This document shows positions 1 to 6,760 of a DNA stretch of 6,816 bases, one piece after another. Under the pieces are notes generated by a model, which was not told the DNA's origin, made no database searches, and saw only the letters and a list, made by a program, of their open reading frames with translations. Position numbers and translations under genes: made by a program. Positions within the stretch are counted from its first letter, which is position 1, and every line of letters starts with the position of its first letter. This DNA is from an uncultured Clostridia bacterium (GTDB taxonomy: Bacteria; Bacillota_A; Clostridia; Oscillospirales; Ruminococcaceae): positions 1 to 6,816 of the forward strand of contig CAMVPV010000071.1 of the NCBI GenBank assembly GCA_947169455.1. The letters are read 5' to 3'.

Positions 1-51
1 TAATTAAGATCAGTATAATTTGAGTTATTATAATTATAATTAATATAATTA
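1..51. other. Very AT-rich tract beside the repeat array (candidate unwinding element)
   Basis: Only 5 of the first 51 bases are G or C, against a much higher GC content in most of the window. The tract directly follows the 23-bp repeat array in the direction of repA transcription. It also codes for the Asn/Tyr-rich part of the RepA linker, so its composition may come from protein sequence alone. An AT-rich tract next to iterons is the normal layout of a DNA unwinding element; that role is inferred. Confidence 0.4.
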
Positions 52-713
52 GGGTCGTTTTTTCCGAATTCAAGACTTTCGATTTCGGGAATTCTTGAAT
101 TTCGATTTTCGTTATTCATGACTTTCGATTTTCCGAATTCAAGACTTTCGATTTCGGGAATTCTTGAATTTCGATTTTCGGTATTCAAGACTTCTGATTT
201 TCCGCATTCAAGACTTTCGATTTCGGGAATTCTTGAATTTCGATTTTCGGTATTCAAGACTTCTGATTTTCCGCATTCAAGACTTTCGATTTCGGGAATT
301 CTTGAATTTCGATTTTCCGAATTCAAGACTTCCGGTTTTGCGGCTTCTTTATCATCGGGCTCATCTATCCTGCGCAAAAAGATAACGGATGGTCTTCCGA
401 GCCCGCGACGGCTGCGTGTGATAAGACAGGCACCATGTTCGTCAAGTTCATTGAAAATACGGATGACTTTTTCGGTTCCGCAGTTGAGTATCTCTGCTGC
501 TTCTTCAACGGTGAAAATGATATATACACGGTCATTTTCATCGAACCAGCCGTTCTGCATGGAGAGCGACATCCTGTCGAGCATGAGGGAATAGAGCAGC
601 TTTGCGCTGTTCGAGAGCTTTGCATAGTCGGGGTCGGTGAACAGCGTCCTCGGCAGCATGATGAAATTCATATCGCGGGTGTCGTCTTTGCAGTAGAAAT
701 TGTTATCGGGCAT
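1..713 (-). CDS. repA: Replication initiator protein A, RepA_N family (5' part; 3' end beyond the left edge)
   Basis: Reading the minus strand gives an open frame with no stop from about 713 to base 1 (237 full codons). Residues about 15-116 match the RepA_N winged-helix domain of Gram-positive plasmid and ICE initiators. Recognisable stretches are FIMLPRTLFTDPDYAKLS, AKLLYSLMLDRMSLSMQNGW, FDENDRVYIIFTVEEAAEIL and RGLGRPSVIFLRR. Family knowledge: this domain binds origin DNA, and a DnaD-like C-terminal domain (here off the window) recruits the replication machinery. Residues about 127-218 are a linker with a 23-residue repeat (ENRNSRIPEIESLE core), followed by an Asn/Tyr-rich stretch (NDPNYINYNYNNSNYTDLN). 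Such repeat and Asn-rich linkers are usual in this family. The start at 713 is preferred because AGGCGG lies 7 nt upstream. An in-frame ATG at 731 would add six residues (MKGGIQ) and is the alternative. The gene is divergent from xylB. The family call is firm; its role on a plasmid, ICE or remnant is inferred. Confidence 0.88.
   Translation of the reverse strand, partial: MPDNNFYCKDDTRDMNFIMLPRTLFTDPDYAKLSNSAKLLYSLMLDRMSLSMQNGWFDENDRVYIIFTVEEAAEILNCGTEKVIRIFNELDEHGACLITRSRRGLGRPSVIFLRRIDEPDDKEAAKPEVLNSENRNSRIPEIESLECGKSEVLNTENRNSRIPEIESLECGKSEVLNTENRNSRIPEIESLEFGKSKVMNNENRNSRIPEIESLEFGKNDPNYINYNYNNSNYTDLN
60..335. repeat. Nested tandem repeat: twelve 23-bp units in 69-bp higher-order units (iteron-like)
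   Basis: Units begin at 60, 83, 106, 129, 152, 175, 198, 221, 244, 267, 290 and 313, each exactly 23 bp with no spacers. Three subtypes alternate. Type A starts TTTTCCG and has ATTCAAGACTTTCGA. Type B starts TTTCGGG and has AATTCTTGAATTTCGA. Type C starts TTTTCGG and has TATTCAAGACTTCTGA. The order is A-B-C repeated, giving a 69-bp period at 60, 129, 198 and 267. All four B copies are identical. The 69-mers at 129 and 198 differ at one base (A136 versus C205). The copy at 106 is diverged, and the last unit at 313 is A-like ending CCGG. Within each 69-mer, ATTCAAGA (type A) and TCTTGAAT (type B) can pair as an 8-bp stem. The array lies inside repA, where RepA_N replicons carry their origin repeats, so an iteron role is likely but inferred. 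Confidence 0.95.
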
Positions 714-848
714 TTGTATTCCGCCTTTCATGTTGAGAGTTTCTTTTTCCGGATTGCACAGAGCACACAAAAACCGCCGATTTTACGCCGCTTGCAGTGC
801 ATTATGCAATCGAGAACCTAAAAAATAAGGGAAGAAATTTCTGTCCTT
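714..848 (-). other. repA untranslated leader with a possible 24-codon upstream ORF
   Basis: The leader runs from the predicted transcription start near 848 to the repA start. Within it, an ATG at 802 (minus strand) opens a 24-codon frame ending with TGA at 730-728, so its stop overlaps the alternative repA ATG at 731 as ATGA. The predicted peptide is basic and Cys-containing (begins MHCKRRKIGG, has CVLC). No good SD precedes it; TTAGG lies about 15 nt upstream. It could couple translation to repA or be chance. No terminator with a T-run is visible in the leader. Confidence 0.3.
798..808. promoter_or_regulatory. Candidate operator copy 2 (TGCATTATGCA) in the repA leader
   Basis: This is a perfect 5-1-5 palindrome (TGCAT-T-ATGCA) about 45 bp downstream of the predicted repA transcription start. 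It lies 86 bp centre to centre from the related site at 884-894. The TTGCA just before it (792-796) can also pair with TGCAA at 805-809. A role in repA control is inferred from the paired arrangement around the promoter. Confidence 0.4.
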
Positions 849-854
849 GTATAT

Positions 855-883
855 ATTATAGCACGTATGTTCTCATTTGTCAA
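855..883 (-). promoter_or_regulatory. repA promoter, consensus sigma-A type with extended -10
   Basis: On the minus strand, TTGACA (878-883) is separated by exactly 17 bp from TATAAT (855-860). TGC directly precedes the -10 box, giving an extended -10 (TGnTATAAT). Both hexamers match the consensus perfectly. Transcription would start near 848 and run left into repA with a leader of about 135 nt. A 10-bp palindrome AGAAATTTCT (834-843) lies just after the start point. Confidence 0.85.
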
Positions 884-894
884 TGCATTACGCA
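884..894. promoter_or_regulatory. Candidate operator copy 1 (TGCATTACGCA), abutting the repA -35 box
   Basis: This 11-bp imperfect palindrome (TGCAT-T-ACGCA) touches the upstream edge of the repA -35 hexamer. It matches the copy at 798-808 in 10 of 11 positions. A protein bound here would contact or exclude RNA polymerase. The regulator is unknown; RepA itself or a neighbouring repressor is possible. Confidence 0.4.
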
Positions 895-1080
895 AAATTT
901 TTGTAAATTTTTTTGCAGCTCCGCTCCCGTGAAAGGAAAGACCGGGATCTTCAATTTTCCATTGCGGAGCACCGGACAACAGAACAAACGCGGGAGATAT
1001 CGGACAGCTGTTATCCGGCAGCGACGCGATAGGGACAGCGGGGGCACCCCGCCCCCGCGGGCTGTGCGGATAATACAAAA
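895..1080. other. Non-coding spacer between the repA and xylB promoters, rich in inverted repeats
   Basis: I see no credible gene here. Two structured blocks are visible. In the first, GCTCCGC (918-924) pairs with GCGGAGC (964-970), and inside it TCCCG (925-929) pairs with CGGGA (943-947). In the second, TTATCCG (1011-1017) pairs with CGGATAA (1067-1073), enclosing a perfect 8-bp GC stem GCGGGGGC/GCCCCCGC (1038-1045 and 1051-1058) with loop ACCCC. Neither has a T-run on the correct side, so neither is a standard intrinsic terminator. They could insulate the divergent promoters, be a REP-like element, or form part of an unseen RNA. Confidence 0.45.
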
Positions 1081-1085
1081 AGTTC

Positions 1086-1114
1086 TTGACATCCCCTTGA
1101 TCTTGATGTAAAAT
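1086..1114 (+). promoter_or_regulatory. xylB operon promoter, sigma-A type
   Basis: TTGACA (1086-1091), a 17-bp spacer and TAAAAT (1109-1114) form a near-consensus promoter 70 bp upstream of the xylB start. Transcription should begin near 1121. It is back to back with the repA promoter, and the GC-rich inverted repeat lies just upstream of it. Confidence 0.75.
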
Positions 1115-1132
1115 ATAAAATGTAATAATATG

Positions 1133-1145
1133 CGGCATAATGCCG
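1133..1145. promoter_or_regulatory. Perfect dyad CGGCAT-A-ATGCCG, candidate operator of the xylB operon
   Basis: This 13-bp inverted repeat has 6-bp arms around A1139, at about +13 to +25 from the predicted start, a usual place for a repressor operator. It does not resemble the Bacillus XylR operator, and no regulator gene is in the window. In RNA it would form only a short hairpin with no loop room, so a protein-binding DNA site is the better reading. Confidence 0.45.
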
Positions 1146-1168
1146 TAAATTTCTGAGATCCAGATCAT

Positions 1169-1174
1169 AAGGAG
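1169..1174 (+). promoter_or_regulatory. Ribosome binding site of xylB (AAGGAG)
   Basis: AAGGAG lies 10 nt before the ATG at 1185. A nearer ATG at 1178 is out of frame with the conserved protein, so the site supports the start at 1185. Confidence 0.75.
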
Positions 1175-1184
1175 TGCATGAACA

Positions 1185-2708
1185 ATGAAGTATGTAATCG
1201 GAATCGACCTCGGTACCAGCGGTACCAAAACAGTCCTCTTCGACACACTCGGCAACGTAGTTGCATCCGCATCGGAGGAATACCCCCTCTATCAGCCAAA
1301 GAACGGCTATGCAGAGCAGGATCCCGATGACTGGTACAAGGCAGCGATAGATACTGTCAGCAGGGTAGTTGAAAAGTCCGGCGTTGACAGCGCAGATATC
1401 GCAGGTATCGGCATATCCGGTCAGATGCACGGTCTTGTTATGCTCGACGCGGACAACAAGGTCATCCGCCGCTCTATCATATGGTGCGACCAGCGCACCG
1501 CCGAAGAGTGCGTTGAGATAACCGAAAAGGTCGGCGCAAAGCGTCTTATAGAGATCACCGCTAACCCCGCGCTCACCGGATTCACCGCATCCAAGATAAT
1601 GTGGGTGAAGAACCACGAGCCCGATAATTACGCAAAGTGCCGCCATATACTCCTGCCCAAGGATTACGTCCGCTTCAAGCTCACGGGCGAATATGCGACC
1701 GAAGTTTCCGATGCATCCGGAATGCAGCTCCTCGATGTTCCCAACCGCTGCTGGTCGGAGGAAGTGCTCGAAAAGCTCGGCATAGATATCGCACTTCTCC
1801 CCAAGGTATATGAATCGCCCGAGATAACCGGCAAGGTGACCGCCGAAGCTGCTGCGCTCACAGGTCTTAAGGAAGGCACTCCCGTTGTGGGCGGCGCAGG
1901 CGACAACGCAGCGGCTGCTGTCGGAACAGGCGTCGTTGTTGACGGCAAGGCGTTCACTACGATAGGCACGAGCGGCGTCGTATTCGCGCACACATCCGGC
2001 ATCAACATCGACCCCGCAGGCAGAGTGCATACCTTCTGCTGTGCGGTTCCCGGCTGCTGGCACGTAATGGGCGTTACTCAGGCGGCAGGTCTTTCGCTGA
2101 GGTGGTTCCGTGACAATTTCTGTTCCGCAGAGGCAGAGGTGGCAAGGCTCACCGGCAAGGACACCTACGAGGTAATGACCGAAGAGGCAGAGCAGGCTCC
2201 CATCGGTTCGGACAGGCTCCTCTATATGCCCTACCTCATGGGCGAGAGAACTCCTCACCTTGACCCCAACGCAAGAGGTATGTTCTTCGGACTTTCCGCT
2301 ATACACACCAAGAAAAACATGATAAGAGCCGTTATGGAAGGCGTTGCTTATTCTATGCGCGACTGCATGGAGATATGCCGCGAAATGGGCATCAGCATCA
2401 ACGATATGATGGCTTGCGGCGGCGGCGGAACTTCTCCGCTGTGGAGACAGATGCTCGCTGACCTGTACAACTGCCCCGTAAAGACGATGGCATCCAAGGA
2501 AGGCCCCGCGCTCGGCGTTGCTATACTCGCAATGGTGGGCACAGGCATATATAATTCCGTACCCGAGGCTTGCGCGGCAGTCGTAAAGACCGACAAGACA
2601 CAGGAGCCCGTTGCGGCTAACGTTCCCGAGTATGAAAAATTCTATTCGCTTTACAGGGAGATCTATCCCTCTGTAAAGGAAAAGTGCGCTAAGCTGGCAC
2701 AGCTCTGA
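1185..2708 (+). CDS. xylB: Xylulokinase (FGGY family)
   Basis: The 507-residue product phosphorylates D-xylulose with ATP to D-xylulose 5-phosphate, which enters the pentose phosphate pathway in the cytoplasm. It is complete and near the family length (E. coli XylB has 484 residues). The first actin-like FGGY domain opens with the phosphate-binding motif GIDLGTSGTKT (6-16). The substrate loop GQMHG is at 79-83, then WCDQRTAEEC (100-109), and LPKDYVRFKLTGEY with SDASGMQLLDV (157-184) is typical of XylB. The catalytic base is expected to be D240 in GGAGDNAAAAVG. The second domain has GTSGVVF (261-267), LMGERTPHLDP (351-361), the glycine-rich ATP-site motif ACGGGGTSPLWRQMLAD (410-426) and EGPALGVA (439-446). 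The start is set by AAGGAG and the conserved N-terminus. It is the first gene of the plus-strand unit, with its own promoter and dyad upstream. No xylA isomerase or transporter is in the window. Another FGGY kinase specificity is possible but less likely. Confidence 0.95.
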   Translation: MKYVIGIDLGTSGTKTVLFDTLGNVVASASEEYPLYQPKNGYAEQDPDDWYKAAIDTVSRVVEKSGVDSADIAGIGISGQMHGLVMLDADNKVIRRSIIWCDQRTAEECVEITEKVGAKRLIEITANPALTGFTASKIMWVKNHEPDNYAKCRHILLPKDYVRFKLTGEYATEVSDASGMQLLDVPNRCWSEEVLEKLGIDIALLPKVYESPEITGKVTAEAAALTGLKEGTPVVGGAGDNAAAAVGTGVVVDGKAFTTIGTSGVVFAHTSGINIDPAGRVHTFCCAVPGCWHVMGVTQAAGLSLRWFRDNFCSAEAEVARLTGKDTYEVMTEEAEQAPIGSDRLLYMPYLMGERTPHLDPNARGMFFGLSAIHTKKNMIRAVMEGVAYSMRDCMEICREMGISINDMMACGGGGTSPLWRQMLADLYNCPVKTMASKEGPALGVAILAMVGTGIYNSVPEACAAVVKTDKTQEPVAANVPEYEKFYSLYREIYPSVKEKCAKLAQL

Positions 2709-2760
2709 TAAAATACATCTGACACGGCGGGCGGGCGGCAGACTGCGGCTCGACCCGCTG
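2709..2760. other. Short GC-rich gap after xylB, no terminator seen
   Basis: The 52-bp gap contains a run of GGCGGGCGGGCGG-type sequence and GCGGG/CCCGC arms (2731-2735, 2754-2758), but no T-run follows. Transcription can therefore read through into the next genes. It is sharply GC-rich just before an AT-rich gene, a compositional break that may mark an old insertion edge. Confidence 0.4.
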
Positions 2761-3405
2761 TTGTCGGATATTTATAACGATATGAAAGAAGTTTATATTA
2801 AATCGGTGGAAACACTGCGATTGACCGAAGCTGTTAAAAACGGCGAAAGTGATATAGATGTGCAGGATTTCCTTGAAAAATCCCACAAAAAAAGTAAAGA
2901 AACGCTGATGAACCTCGCGGAAAGCGATATTGATGATCCTGCCGTATTTATGTTACAGATATGCGATGCATGGCTGCGTGAACGCAGCAGGATGACATTG
3001 TATGAAAGCGGGAAATTTTTTCTTAGGATAAGAGATAAAGACCTTACTCTGCATATCGAAAACAATGCTTCCGAAAAGCTGAAAGCCATAGTGGAAAAAT
3101 ATTCAGCTAAAATTTCTGCTGATGATTTTTATGTTGAACACGATAAATATTATGACGGGTTTATTTACAGATTGATGGCGACAGACGGTAGTTCAGCCAT
3201 TTACGGGATATATTTATCAAATCTGAAATACTACAATGAATCGGAATCGCCTAACGGATATGCTGTTTTTTCACTGATTTGTGATGTGGCGGAATATCTT
3301 GGCGGATTTACAGATACGGACATTTTGCGCATAGTTAAGGAACCGCATTTATTAATGAGTGGGAATTGGGGTGTAATATTTGCAGAGAAAAAACCTGTTC
3401 AATGA
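2761..3405 (+). CDS. Hypothetical protein, AT-rich gene between xylB and the GH2 enzyme
   Basis: I do not recognise this 214-residue protein. It looks soluble: no signal peptide or membrane segment is visible. The first ~60 residues are charged and probably helical (SVETLRLTEAVKNGESDIDV, KSHKKSKETLMNLAE), followed by a mixed alpha/beta pattern (FFLRIRDKDLTLHIENN; DGFIYRLMATDGSSAIYGIY). A compact C-terminal part ends GNWGVIFAEKKPVQ. The start is uncertain: TTG at 2761 gives the longest form, ATG at 2782 removes seven residues, and neither has a good SD. By hand count bases 2761-3360 are 225/600 = 37.5% GC, while sampled 60-base lines of xylB and the GH2 gene are 57-67%. The codon choice (AAA, GAA, TTT, ATT) follows that shift. 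Its end overlaps the GH2 start by 26 nt. The composition suggests acquisition by transfer. It is co-oriented and likely cotranscribed with xylB, but a sugar-related role is not shown. Confidence 0.7.
   Translation: MSDIYNDMKEVYIKSVETLRLTEAVKNGESDIDVQDFLEKSHKKSKETLMNLAESDIDDPAVFMLQICDAWLRERSRMTLYESGKFFLRIRDKDLTLHIENNASEKLKAIVEKYSAKISADDFYVEHDKYYDGFIYRLMATDGSSAIYGIYLSNLKYYNESESPNGYAVFSLICDVAEYLGGFTDTDILRIVKEPHLLMSGNWGVIFAEKKPVQ
3368..3373 (+). promoter_or_regulatory. SD-like GGGGTG deciding the TTG start of the GH2 gene
   Basis: GGGGTG lies 6 nt upstream of TTG at 3380, inside the coding end of the previous gene. In the GH2 frame a TAA stop sits at 3374-3376, and no ATG occurs before the conserved N-terminal region, so TTG is the only reasonable start. 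Confidence 0.5.
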
Positions 3406-6400
3406 CGGCTGGGAATTTTTCCTTGCCGAAAGCGGTGCGGGGATAGCCGCCGCCGAAAACGCGGAGTATGCTCCCGTGGATATCCCGCACGACTGGCTGA
3501 TATACGATACGGACAACTTATATAAGTCCGGCGACGGACTTTACAGGAAATTCTTTGAAGCGGACGACATATACTCTCACAGCTATATTCTCTGCTTTGA
3601 CGGTGTGTATATGGACTGCACCGTTTATGTCAACGGCACCGAGGCAGTCTCGTGGACGCACGGATATACATCGTTCGGCACCGATATCTCCGCGCTGCTC
3701 AACGAGGGCAGGAACCGCATAGATGTGCTCGTCCGCTATAAGTCACCCAATTCAAGGTGGTACTCGGGCGCGGGCATCTTCCGCAATGTATGGCTGTATG
3801 AGCTCTCACCCGTTCACCTCAATATCAACGGGATATATATATCGCCCGACGCCGAAACAGGCGATATCTACATAAATACCGAAACGGTCGGCGTAAGCTC
3901 CGCCATGCCCCCGCTCGAAGTGCGGCATACCGCATTCGATGAAAGCGGAAATATCATCGCACAGGGACGCTCGCCCGTCACATGGAGCTGCAACGAATTC
4001 ACGATACACGCCGACGATATCAGGCTGTGGAGCCTCGAAGAACGCAATCTCTATACGCTCCGCACCGAGCTTGCCGTGATACAGGACGGCACCGTCCTCG
4101 ACTGCGATGAAAACACGTTCGGTTTCCGCAAGCTGAGATTTGACCCCGACTTCGGCTTCTTCCTCAACGGGAAGAATATCAAGCTGAAAGGCGTATGTCT
4201 GCACCACGACCTCGGCTGTCTCGGTGCGGCATTCAACAGCAGCGCGCTCGAACGTCAGCTGATGATAATGAAGGATATGGGCGTCAATTCGGTGCGCACC
4301 TCGCACAATCCGCCCGCCGCGGAATTCATGGAGATATGCGACCGCATAGGCTTGCTGGTTGACAGCGAATGCTTCGATATGTGGGAGCTGCACAAGACCG
4401 AGTTCGACAACGCGCGGTTTTTCAAGGACACCGCTCACCGCGACGTGAAAAGCTGGGTCAAGCGCGACCGCAATCACCCGTCGCTCATAATGTGGAGCAT
4501 AGGCAATGAGATACTTGACACTCACGTTGATGAACACGGGTATGAAACAGCCGAACAGCTTGCGGGCTATGTGAAGGAATCCGATTACAAGGGCAACGCA
4601 AAGCCGACTATCGCTTCAAATTACATAGAATGGGAAAACGCGCAGAAGGTAGGAAAAATGCTCGGCATCTCCGGATATAACTACACCGAGCGCTGCTATG
4701 ACGATCACCATAAAAAATACCCGCGTACCGTGATCTACGGCAGCGAGACAGCTTCTGCACTGCGCAGCCGCGGGATATATCATTTCCCCGCGGATATACC
4801 GAAGCTGACCCACGCGGACAATCAGTGCTCCTCGCTCGGCAACAGCACCGCGCGCTGGGGCAGCACCGCCGAGGATGCATGGACAGCCGACCGCGACCGC
4901 CCGTTCTGCATGGGGCAGTATGTATGGTCGGGGTTCGATTACATCGGCGAGCCAACTCCCTACGAAACGCGGAGCTGCTATTTCGGCGCGGTCGATACCG
5001 CGGGCATACCGAAGGATATATATTATTTCTACAAGTCGGTGTGGACGGACGAGCCGATGATACATCTGCTGCCGTACTGGGATTTCAGCGAGGGACAGGA
5101 AACAGACGTCATAGCCTACACGAACGCTCCCTGCGCCGAGCTTTTCCTCAACGGCGTGTCACAGGGGAAACAGTACATCGACCATGAACACGGAAAAGTC
5201 CTGCATTGTCAGTGGAAGGTAAGATACACCGCGGGAGAGATAACCGCGAAGGCTTACGATGACAGCGGGAACATGATCGCAGAGGAAACGCGCCGCAGCT
5301 TCGGCGATGCAGCAAGGCTCCGCGTGGCCGCCGAAAGGGATACCGTGAAGGCGGACGGGCGGGATGTCGTTTTCGTTATCATATCCGCGGAGGACAAGGA
5401 CGGAAACCCCGTCGAGAATGCGCGGAACAGATTCACCGTAAAGGTGACGGGCGCGGGAAGGCTCGCGGGAACGGACAACGGCGACCCCACCGATACAGAC
5501 GGGTACAGATCGGACTGCCGCAGGCTGTTCTCGGGCAAAGCCGCCGCCGCGGTGATGTCCGGCACGGAGGCGGGCGATATAACGGTCACTGTGACCTCCG
5601 AAGGGCTCGGAAGCGCAGAAGCAACGATACGCGCAGAGAAAGTCCCCGTGCCCGCGGGAGTTTCGGCGGTGACAGGCGTTCCCTGTTCCGGCAGCACGGA
5701 TAAGGAGATACCGATAAGAACGGCAAAGCTGTCCTGCGGTCTGCACACGCTGACGCCGGACACTCCGGAATGTGACGCCGCGATAGAGATATTCCCCGCG
5801 AACCGCACCTATGATGATATATCCTGCGCGGTGCTGAAGGCAAACGGCACGAAGTCGGACTGCGCAGAGGCGGTATATGCTGACGGGAAGATACATATCA
5901 CCGCAAAGGGCGACGGAGAAGCCGTGCTCACGGTGTTCTGCATGAACGGCGGGAAATATCCGCAGCTCATCGCGGAAATGAACTTCTCCTGCGAGGGCTT
6001 CGGACAGACGCTCCGCAGCCCGTATGAATACATATCGGCGGCGGAATATTCAAGTTCGCCCGATACGTTCAGCATAACCGAGGGAAATTCTGTCGGCGCT
6101 TTCGGGGATAATGTGACGCTGTATTTCGACGGCACAGACTTCGGAAAGCACGGCAGCGAAAGAATAGAACTGTATATCGGCAACAGCAGCGGAAAAGACG
6201 TTATCATAGATATCCTTGACGGGGAGCGGACGATAACTGCGGTAAATTTCCCGCATAACGGATTGTGGAACAGCTTTGCGCCGATGACGTTCGCTCTGCC
6301 CGAAAAGCTGAAGGGCGTACATACGCTCGGGTTCAGGATAAGAGGAAGATGTCTGTTCGGCGGATCTGAATTTGTTTCCCCTGTGTTCGGAACGATATTC

Positions 6401-6760
6401 CCAGCCGACTGTGACGAGCTTTACGGCGACTGCTTCACGAAGGACGGCAGTTCTGTCCGCGGCATAGGGAACAACACCGTTATCGGTTTCCGTGCGCTCA
6501 GCTTCGGCAGCGGAGCGGATGCGGTAATTATCCGCGGCAGCACGCCCAATGAGATCAACACGATACAGATGAAGATATCAAAGGACGGCGCCGAGACTAC
6601 TCATCTGCTGGAGTTCAGACAGAACGGCGGTCATGAACAGCAGTTCGGCATACCGGAGATCACGGGCGTGAACGATGTCGATCTGGTATTTCTGCCCGGC
6701 AGCGATTTTGATCTTGACAGCTTCAGCTTTGTCAAAAAAGAAGAAACCCCGGAGGGATGA
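3380..6760 (+). CDS. Multi-domain glycoside hydrolase family 2 enzyme, beta-galactosidase type
   Basis: The 1126-residue product is a retaining exo-glycosidase, most likely a beta-galactosidase acting on oligosaccharides. Visible order: GH2 sugar-binding jelly roll (1-145; IPHDWLIYDTDN, RWYSGAGIFRNVWL), GH2 Ig-like domain (148-250), TIM barrel (252-555), a DUF4982-like domain (about 560-635; HLLPYWDFSEGQETDVIAYT), a GH2 C-terminal 'domain 5' (645-750), another Ig-like domain (755-875), and two C-terminal beta-sandwich modules (about 885-1005 and 1012-1118; GAFGDNVTLYFDGTDFG, GIGNNTVIGFRALSFG) resembling carbohydrate-binding modules. In the barrel, RTSHNPP (306-312) is conserved, E377 in WSIGNEI is the expected acid/base, and E456 in IYGSETASALRSRG the expected nucleophile. 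WSGFDYIGEPTPY (516-528) is typical of this subgroup. There is no signal peptide, so it should act in the cytoplasm. It starts at TTG and overlaps the upstream gene by 26 nt, suggesting translational coupling. The sugar specificity (galactoside versus another glycoside) cannot be fixed from sequence. Confidence 0.93.
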   Translation: MQRKNLFNDGWEFFLAESGAGIAAAENAEYAPVDIPHDWLIYDTDNLYKSGDGLYRKFFEADDIYSHSYILCFDGVYMDCTVYVNGTEAVSWTHGYTSFGTDISALLNEGRNRIDVLVRYKSPNSRWYSGAGIFRNVWLYELSPVHLNINGIYISPDAETGDIYINTETVGVSSAMPPLEVRHTAFDESGNIIAQGRSPVTWSCNEFTIHADDIRLWSLEERNLYTLRTELAVIQDGTVLDCDENTFGFRKLRFDPDFGFFLNGKNIKLKGVCLHHDLGCLGAAFNSSALERQLMIMKDMGVNSVRTSHNPPAAEFMEICDRIGLLVDSECFDMWELHKTEFDNARFFKDTAHRDVKSWVKRDRNHPSLIMWSIGNEILDTHVDEHGYETAEQLAGYVKESDYKGNAKPTIASNYIEWENAQKVGKMLGISGYNYTERCYDDHHKKYPRTVIYGSETASALRSRGIYHFPADIPKLTHADNQCSSLGNSTARWGSTAEDAWTADRDRPFCMGQYVWSGFDYIGEPTPYETRSCYFGAVDTAGIPKDIYYFYKSVWTDEPMIHLLPYWDFSEGQETDVIAYTNAPCAELFLNGVSQGKQYIDHEHGKVLHCQWKVRYTAGEITAKAYDDSGNMIAEETRRSFGDAARLRVAAERDTVKADGRDVVFVIISAEDKDGNPVENARNRFTVKVTGAGRLAGTDNGDPTDTDGYRSDCRRLFSGKAAAAVMSGTEAGDITVTVTSEGLGSAEATIRAEKVPVPAGVSAVTGVPCSGSTDKEIPIRTAKLSCGLHTLTPDTPECDAAIEIFPANRTYDDISCAVLKANGTKSDCAEAVYADGKIHITAKGDGEAVLTVFCMNGGKYPQLIAEMNFSCEGFGQTLRSPYEYISAAEYSSSPDTFSITEGNSVGAFGDNVTLYFDGTDFGKHGSERIELYIGNSSGKDVIIDILDGERTITAVNFPHNGLWNSFAPMTFALPEKLKGVHTLGFRIRGRCLFGGSEFVSPVFGTIFPADCDELYGDCFTKDGSSVRGIGNNTVIGFRALSFGSGADAVIIRGSTPNEINTIQMKISKDGAETTHLLEFRQNGGHEQQFGIPEITGVNDVDLVFLPGSDFDLDSFSFVKKEETPEG
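6751..6756 (+). promoter_or_regulatory. Ribosome binding site of the last gene (GGAGGG)
   Basis: GGAGGG overlaps the last codons of the GH2 gene, 9 nt before the ATG at 6766. ATGs at 6757 and 6760 are in the same frame but too close to the SD for efficient initiation. Confidence 0.6.

What the first reader, a model, noticed from the sequence alone, without database searches (positions are those of the whole stretch)
60..335. Iteron-like 12 x 23-bp array inside repA: candidate replication origin
Seen: twelve contiguous 23-bp units of three alternating subtypes within the linker-coding part of a RepA_N gene. Known: in RepA_N replicons of Gram-positive plasmids the origin repeats bound by the initiator lie within the central part of the rep gene itself. 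Inference: this array is the initiator's binding site and the origin of a plasmid or mobile element. The A-B-C alternation of subtypes (69-bp super-period) is an organisation I do not recall for described RepA_N origins and could set spacing or cooperativity of initiator binding.
Basis: partly seen in the sequence, partly recalled or inferred. Interest (0 to 1): 0.75.

Follow-up and report, generated by a model that had tools for sequence, protein, structure and literature searches.

The report
Replication origin inside its initiator gene
A gut-bacterial gene for a plasmid-type replication starter protein carries, within its own coding sequence, twelve 23-base repeats of the kind that in a well-studied plasmid are the protein's docking sites, so this is most likely the starting point for copying a mobile element, of a known kind but unusually long.

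Summary
In detail: 12 contiguous 23-bp units at 60-335 inside a RepA_N gene on the minus strand. Best reading: the initiator's iteron array, the core of a replication origin built into the rep gene. (1) pSK41, whose four Rep boxes central in rep are reported to be bound by the RepA_N domain, shows four tandem 23-bp units there. (2) 63 of 84 non-redundant RepA_N genes have a significant 23-bp linker array (other periods tested 0-6 of 84); a second set gave 21 of 23. As 23 is not a multiple of 3, peptide repetition cannot explain this. (3) In relatives an AT-rich tract follows the array, with a recurring ATACTGA whose codon choice points to DNA-level constraint; here it is bases 1-59. The A-B-C alternation is not a conserved design (lag 69 above lag 23 in 10 of 33 arrays): three units are the smallest in-frame block, and this array looks expanded in 69-bp steps. 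It is the longest of 83 arrays measured. Element type is undetermined; the nearest relative lies between integrase and relaxase genes. Binding and replication are untested. New member of a known kind.

The parts
60..335 (-). 12 x 23-bp iteron array (four A-B-C triplets of 69 bp) in the linker-coding part of repA; consensus on the gene strand TCGAAAGTCTTGAATTCCGAAAA
   Evidence: relatives
1..59 (-). AT-rich tract (AT 0.83, against 0.64 in the array and 0.52 in 336-731) directly after the array in gene direction; candidate unwinding region; codes an N/Y-rich stretch
   Evidence: same position in relatives
9..16 (-). ATACTGAT; its first seven bases are the ATACTGA that recurs in this tract in relatives
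   Evidence: read from sequence; enrichment
3..713 (-). repA, RepA_N-type initiator, likely start 713 (ORF also open from 731 and 770); C-terminal part beyond the window
444..668 (-). RepA_N (winged helix) DNA-binding domain
   Evidence: Pfam PF06970; nearest solved structures 4pta, 4pt7, 4pql, 5kbj
855..883 (-). promoter-like site TTGACA-17-TATAAT (12 of 12) with TG before -10, facing repA
   Evidence: consensus match only: 4 sites of at least 9 of 12 found in 1-1300 against 2.6 in shuffles, of which this is the only 12 of 12
798..808 (.). near-palindromic TGCATTATGCA in the repA leader; possible operator
884..894 (.). TGCATTACGCA just upstream of the -35; second copy of the possible operator

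Best explanation
The array is the iteron cluster of a RepA_N-type replication origin lying inside the gene of its own initiator. The N-terminal winged-helix domain of RepA would bind each 23-bp unit in tandem; the loaded array would strain and open the AT-rich tract directly beside it (window 59 down to 1 and beyond), where the C-terminal domain, not in the window, would bring in host replication proteins. The linker peptide encoded by array and tract is probably a disordered by-product that tolerates a DNA-level design. Alternation A-B-C arises because 23 bp is out of frame: only triplets of units (69 bp = 23 codons) can be gained or lost without a frameshift, and the present array looks like about four near-identical 69-bp copies. 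Shown: the array, its place, the shared 23-bp pitch, the tract and its motif in relatives. Inferred: binding, unwinding, origin activity, recent expansion.
For: Units A, B, C are read in three different frames yet agree at 53 of 69 pairwise positions, so the likeness is at DNA level. pSK41 rep, read here from NC_005024, has four tandem 23-bp units; review PMC5703833 (passages) says the pSK41 N-terminal domain binds four Rep boxes found centrally in rep and that this central DNA corresponds to the ori. In 84 RepA_N genes under 70% identity, lag 23 is the best of 12 lags of its frame class in 60 linkers and lag 46 the best of 11 in 52; controls: N-terminal domain 15 and 6 of 84, C-terminal 300 bp 6 and 5 of 70. 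A 23-bp array at p<=0.01 against codon shuffles in 63 of 84, against 3, 0, 1, 6, 4, 0, 5, 0 for periods 17, 19, 20, 22, 25, 26, 28, 29; in 23 further genes 21, against 0 to 3 for the same other periods. The nearest relative found, L164 (65% identity over query residues 7-121), has a short degenerate array in the linker (2.8 unit lengths called), and on the same 23-bp grid just past the called run a unit containing CGGAAAATCGAAA, which also occurs in the window array (sequence). AT content exceeds the gene mean by 0.19 and 0.15 in the two 20-bp bins just past the array and lies between -0.04 and +0.02 in all other bins from -120 to +260 (61-64 genes per bin); replicated, positive in 21 of 21. 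ATACTGA: 37 of 64 genes, 10 per kb in the tract against 0.05 elsewhere; 15 of 21 in the second set. Thr in the context N/D-T-D/E is ACT in 55 of 56 tract cases against 6 of 25 elsewhere, while the equally AT-rich ACA falls from 282 of 720 Thr elsewhere to 22 of 180 in the tract. More alike RepA domains have somewhat more alike units (Spearman 0.34, pairs not independent).
Against: No binding or replication data for this gene. The window's own unit is not significantly palindromic by my test (6/8, p 0.37; 21 of 64 arrays reach p<=0.05), although palindromy is described for most RepA_N iterons (PMC7145576, passages); the test is weak, pSK41 itself gives 6/8, p 0.14. 21 of 84 genes lack a 23-bp array at p<=0.01; of 20 such genes examined some show 24, 22 or 17 bp, and three Lactobacillales plasmids show multiples of three such as 42, 54, 63 and 66, so the pitch is not universal. 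Even in the N-terminal control lag 23 was the most frequent of its class (15 of 84, about 7 expected). ATACTGA always lies in one codon frame (64 of 64), so protein-level selection may contribute. The C-terminal domain is outside the window, so the gene may not be intact.
Confidence: 0.83

Rival explanations
1. The units are RepA binding sites, but here they mainly serve control (autoregulation, handcuffing, incompatibility) in an element that no longer replicates on its own, such as an integrated element.
For: RepA_N genes of relatives sit in integrated-type or conjugative contexts: integrase and Mob_Pre relaxase in L194, ParA and ParB in L199, conjugative coupling protein and TraG-type ATPase in L198. 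The unusually high unit number (12) could titrate initiator.
Against: The AT-rich tract with the ATACTGA motif stays beside the array in relatives, which suits unwinding rather than mere titration.
Confidence: 0.12
2. A protein-level repeat: the linker peptide is repeated for a structural or binding role and the DNA repeat is a by-product.
For: The peptide does repeat with 23 residues; relatives keep similar linker peptides.
Against: Units repeat every 23 bp in three frames within one period of the peptide; 23 and 46 bp lags dominate in relatives; the linker is modelled without structure (pLDDT 31-41, but from a weak model with 10 sequences).
Confidence: 0.02
3. Neutral tandem duplication by slippage in a dispensable linker, without function.
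For: Lag-69 identity in the window region is 0.93, so the present length looks recent; 23-residue indels occur in 4 of 30 clusters of close relatives.
Against: Slippage does not predict the same 23-bp pitch in 63 of 84 genes with differing unit sequence, nor four 23-bp units where the pSK41 Rep boxes are reported.
Confidence: 0.03

Closest known systems
pSK41 rep/ori (RepA_N replicon of Staphylococcus aureus; NC_005024, L097)
   Same: RepA_N domain; [quoted passage not shown] AT-rich tract with ATACTGA copies directly after them
   Different: 4 units in pSK41; 12 units in three subtypes here; unit sequence differs; pSK41 binding is established in the literature, here untested
repA of genome G818, contig 61 (L164, L194), nearest relative found
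   Same: 65% identity in the N-terminal part; degenerate 23-bp units in the linker, followed by an AT-rich stretch with ATACTGA
   Different: short array (2.8 unit lengths called), not homogenised; flanked by tyrosine integrase and Mob_Pre relaxase genes, neither seen in the window
PLE RepA of Vibrio cholerae phage satellites (PMC7145576, passages)
   Same: RepA_N fold; a repeat that is bound in gel shift and needed for replication
   Different: iterons lie in a noncoding region (NCR3), not in the rep gene
Rep_3 iteron plasmids (e.g. pSK639, five 22-bp repeats; PMC5703833 passages)
   Same: tandem direct repeats of about two helical turns
   Different: different initiator domain (Rep_3); repeats lie upstream of rep

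Membership tests
RepA_N replicon | N-terminal RepA_N domain in the initiator | tested here: met
   PF06970 1.1e-29; solved RepA_N structures 4pta, 4pt7, 4pql, 5kbj at E 5e-24 to 5e-22; the fold search puts the same entries first, but from a weak model (TMq about 0.29)
RepA_N replicon | tandem direct repeats (Rep boxes) in the central, linker-coding part of rep | tested here: met
   same place and same 23-bp pitch as pSK41
RepA_N replicon | semi-palindromic units with a poly-A centre | tested here: inconclusive
   on the gene strand 8 of 12 units end in AAAA and the four B units in AAA; inverted repeat 6/8, p 0.37
RepA_N replicon | AT-rich stretch beside the repeats (my criterion, from relatives) | tested here: met
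   AT 0.83 in 1-59
RepA_N replicon | host-specific C-terminal domain contacting host replication proteins | not testable with these tools
   C-terminus lies beyond the window; no whole genome held
RepA_N replicon | RepA binds the repeats and the region replicates autonomously | not testable with these tools
   needs gel shift and mini-replicon assay
integrative element (ICE/IME) | integrase and relaxase genes with repA | not testable with these tools
   window ends in repA; the three other long ORFs given to Pfam are not such genes; among relatives L194 has both

The most novel reading that the evidence does not exclude
Much of the RepA_N family in Clostridia, Staphylococcus and Bacillus shares one hidden origin grammar written over coding DNA: a 23-bp, frame-breaking iteron grid, then a 40-bp AT-rich opening zone with ATACTGA repeats kept by codon choice, then in some genes a frame-independent TATCNTATC box; array length grows in quanta of three iterons because of the reading frame, so iteron number and linker length evolve together. 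The window is the longest such array measured here.
Probability: 0.5. Interest if true: 0.62.

Novelty: new member of a known kind. Interest (0 to 1): 0.45.

Why it matters
Origins inside rep genes are known for RepA_N plasmids, but the regular 23-bp pitch gives a simple, testable way to locate the origin in many unannotated RepA_N genes of gut bacteria and their integrative elements. It is also a clear case of DNA-level function imposed on coding sequence against the triplet frame. [quoted passage not shown] the conserved adjacent tract and its motif give a concrete target. Whether the 23-bp pitch or the tract motif are already in print I could not settle: the two sources I most wanted (Weaver 2009, PMC2652615; Schumacher 2014, PNAS) are not held, and in the listings of searches (titles and starts of abstracts) I saw nothing on it; of the listed papers I opened passages of two.

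Tried and rejected
Protein-repeat explanation: rejected by the frame argument. A-B-C alternation as a conserved design: rejected (10 of 33 arrays have lag 69 above lag 23). Significant palindrome in the window unit: not found (p 0.37). Boundary of a mobile element between repA and the xylulokinase gene: window 731-1200 gave no match at E<=0.01 among all loci held then, and only short matches (best E 0.01) in six xylulokinase loci; no boundary found. TGCATTAYGCA in relatives: no exact match in the 200 loci held then. tRNA gene in L194: none found. RepA in the family of the genome with a high GH2 match (G241): 0 of 13 genomes. Three-iteron quantum: 23-residue indels in 4 of 30 clusters, every other length of 15 or more in at most 2, but there are many shorter indels, partly alignment noise, so only suggestive. 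Megaplasmid idea: xylulokinase best plasmid hit 63% in a Monoglobus record, not pursued. The structure model is weak (mean pLDDT 48, 10 sequences; residues 1-28 also below 50) and is used only as a hint that the linker is disordered. The genome-contig scan gave 1 locus, the viral-contig scan 9.

Rows dropped before counts: 147 RepA_N ORFs became 116 with the domain end reached and at least 80 residues after it, then 84 under 70% identity, 37 became 33, then 23 (also dropped if similar to the 84). Of 14 plasmid loci 9 are among the 84; 6 of those 9 have the 23-bp array. The array count is 63 of 84 with 100 shuffles; in the 200-shuffle run of the same one search had p<=0.01, hence the 64 arrays and the 20 exceptions. 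One search uses 83 arrays of at least 60 bp (64 plus 19 of the second set); one search uses 21 of 23. Genomes were samples: 146 of an order, 391 and 291 of a class, 148 and 347 of a family, with RepA matches in 37 of 146, 112 of 391 and 69 of 347; I fetched only part of the listed matches, chosen mostly from the top.

Full report
What is there. The minus strand carries a RepA_N-type replication initiator gene that runs from about 713 off the left edge of the window. Behind its DNA-binding domain (444-668) lie twelve contiguous 23-bp units at 60-335, then an AT-rich stretch to the window edge (AT 0.83 in 1-59; 0.64 in the array; 0.52 in 336-731). Upstream there is a promoter-like site with all 12 consensus bases (855-883) facing repA, with TGCATTATGCA and TGCATTACGCA at 798-808 and 884-894. 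The other side carries a xylulokinase (FGGY), a 214-residue ORF without a Pfam match and a glycoside hydrolase family 2 protein.

Is it more than chance. Subtypes A, B and C agree at 53 of 69 pairwise positions; the highest of 20,000 shuffles was 35. Since 23 is not a multiple of 3, the three subtypes are read in three different frames, so the likeness cannot come from peptide repetition. The peptide repeat of 23 residues is what any 23-bp repeat gives after three units.

Comparison with relatives. From 148 sources I took 147 RepA_N ORFs, 116 of them usable, 84 under 70% identity. Lag 23 was the best of 12 lags of its frame class in 60 of 84 linkers and lag 46 the best of 11 in 52 of 84. Controls: 15 and 6 of 84 in the N-terminal domain, 6 and 5 of 70 in the C-terminal 300 bp; the 15 is itself the highest count of its class, with about 7 expected. 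Against codon shuffles, 63 of 84 have a 23-bp array at p<=0.01; periods 17, 19, 20, 22, 25, 26, 28 and 29 give 3, 0, 1, 6, 4, 0, 5, 0. A further set of 23 genes, mostly from one family sample, gave 21; the other periods 0 to 3. Exceptions: of 20 genes without the array examined, L009 and L017 show 24 bp, L116 22 bp, L090 17 bp, L122 and L061 46 bp, one nothing, and the three Lactobacillales plasmids multiples of three such as 42, 54, 63 and 66; many also show 15 bp, the spacing of the tract beside the array. So the pitch is prevalent, not universal.

The anchor. pSK41 rep shows four tandem 23-bp units in the linker, in the part of the gene where a review reports four Rep boxes bound by the N-terminal domain (PMC5703833, passages). 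The passages I saw do not give their length; the 23 bp is measured here. [quoted passage not shown] In my set 21 of 64 unit consensuses are palindromic at p<=0.05, with A at 0.69 in the centres of those 21; the window's is not (p 0.37), nor is that of pSK41 (p 0.14), so the test is weak.

The tract beside the array. In 64 genes AT content exceeds the gene mean by 0.19 and 0.15 in the first two 20-bp bins past the array; all other bins from -120 to +260 lie between -0.04 and +0.02. In 21 arrays of the second set the excess over 40 bp is 0.14 and positive in 21 of 21. ATACTGA occurs in 37 of 64 tracts, 10 per kb against 0.05 elsewhere, and in 15 of 21 of the second set with none in 18,867 bp elsewhere. 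It always lies in one codon frame (64 of 64), so I tested codon choice: threonine between N/D and D/E is ACT in 55 of 56 tract cases and 6 of 25 elsewhere; ACT is a larger share of threonines in the tract in 48 of 52 genes; in 23 genes picked because they seldom use ACT elsewhere (26 of 275), the tract uses it for 56 of 76. General AT-richness is not enough: ACA, equally AT-rich, is 22 of 180 threonines in the tract and 282 of 720 elsewhere. TATC-A/C/T-TATC lies within 200 bp past the array in 14 of 64 genes, in all three frames (9, 9 and 5 occurrences), and 0 times in 49,313 bp elsewhere; with any middle base, 3 of 21 in the second set. In the window this stretch is beyond the edge.

Why A-B-C. 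If alternation were a design, lag 69 should beat lag 23 generally. In 33 arrays of at least 100 bp it does so in 10 (means 0.623 and 0.674). In the window it is 0.93 against 0.72. The simple account is duplication in 69-bp steps, the smallest that keep the frame. Indels of 23 residues occur in 4 of 30 clusters of close relatives, which fits but is not proof. The array is the longest of 83 (13.0 unit lengths by the detection rule, next 9.0, median 4.2).

Which element. No genome is held for the window. Its xylulokinase is up to 78% identical to genes in one family of genomes, and a search of that family gave the nearest RepA (65%; RepA matches in 69 of 347 genomes). That relative lies between a tyrosine integrase and a Mob_Pre relaxase gene on a 4,992-bp contig; L199 has ParA and ParB genes after repA, and L198 conjugation genes. 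So an integrative or mobilisable element is plausible by analogy, but not shown for the window.

Mechanism proposed. RepA loads along the 23-bp grid, the neighbouring AT-rich tract opens, and the C-terminal domain recruits host proteins; the review reports that the pSK41 C-terminal domain interacts with the host primase DnaG. Binding, opening and origin activity here are inference.

Noticed in passing
window 798-808 and 884-894: TGCATTAYGCA at two places around the repA promoter and leader (3 matches with one mismatch allowed, one of them the first place on the other strand; 0.29 expected); no exact match in 200 other loci.
   Followed up: partly
window 1185-6760: Xylulokinase, 214-residue ORF without Pfam hit and GH2 glycosidase beside repA.
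   Followed up: partly
relatives, 0-200 bp past the array: TATCNTATC box in all three codon frames (14 of 64 genes), 0 in 49,313 bp elsewhere in these genes; unexplained.
   Followed up: partly
L009, L017 (24 bp), L116 (22 bp), L090 (17 bp); L138, L139, L146: RepA_N genes with other linker periods; the three Lactobacillales plasmids show multiples of three such as 42, 54, 63, 66.
   Followed up: partly
L011, L024, L037-L040 and many rows: RepA_N open frames of 137 residues without linker or C-terminal part, several per genome in some genomes; in L024 one lies directly before a full-length repA. Role unknown.
   Followed up: no
L066 (NZ_CP031260, labelled Klebsiella quasipneumoniae plasmid): Carries a RepA_N gene with a 23-bp array close to that of a Staphylococcus plasmid (same cluster as L065) and a fosD gene call; may be a mislabelled or mixed record.
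   Followed up: no
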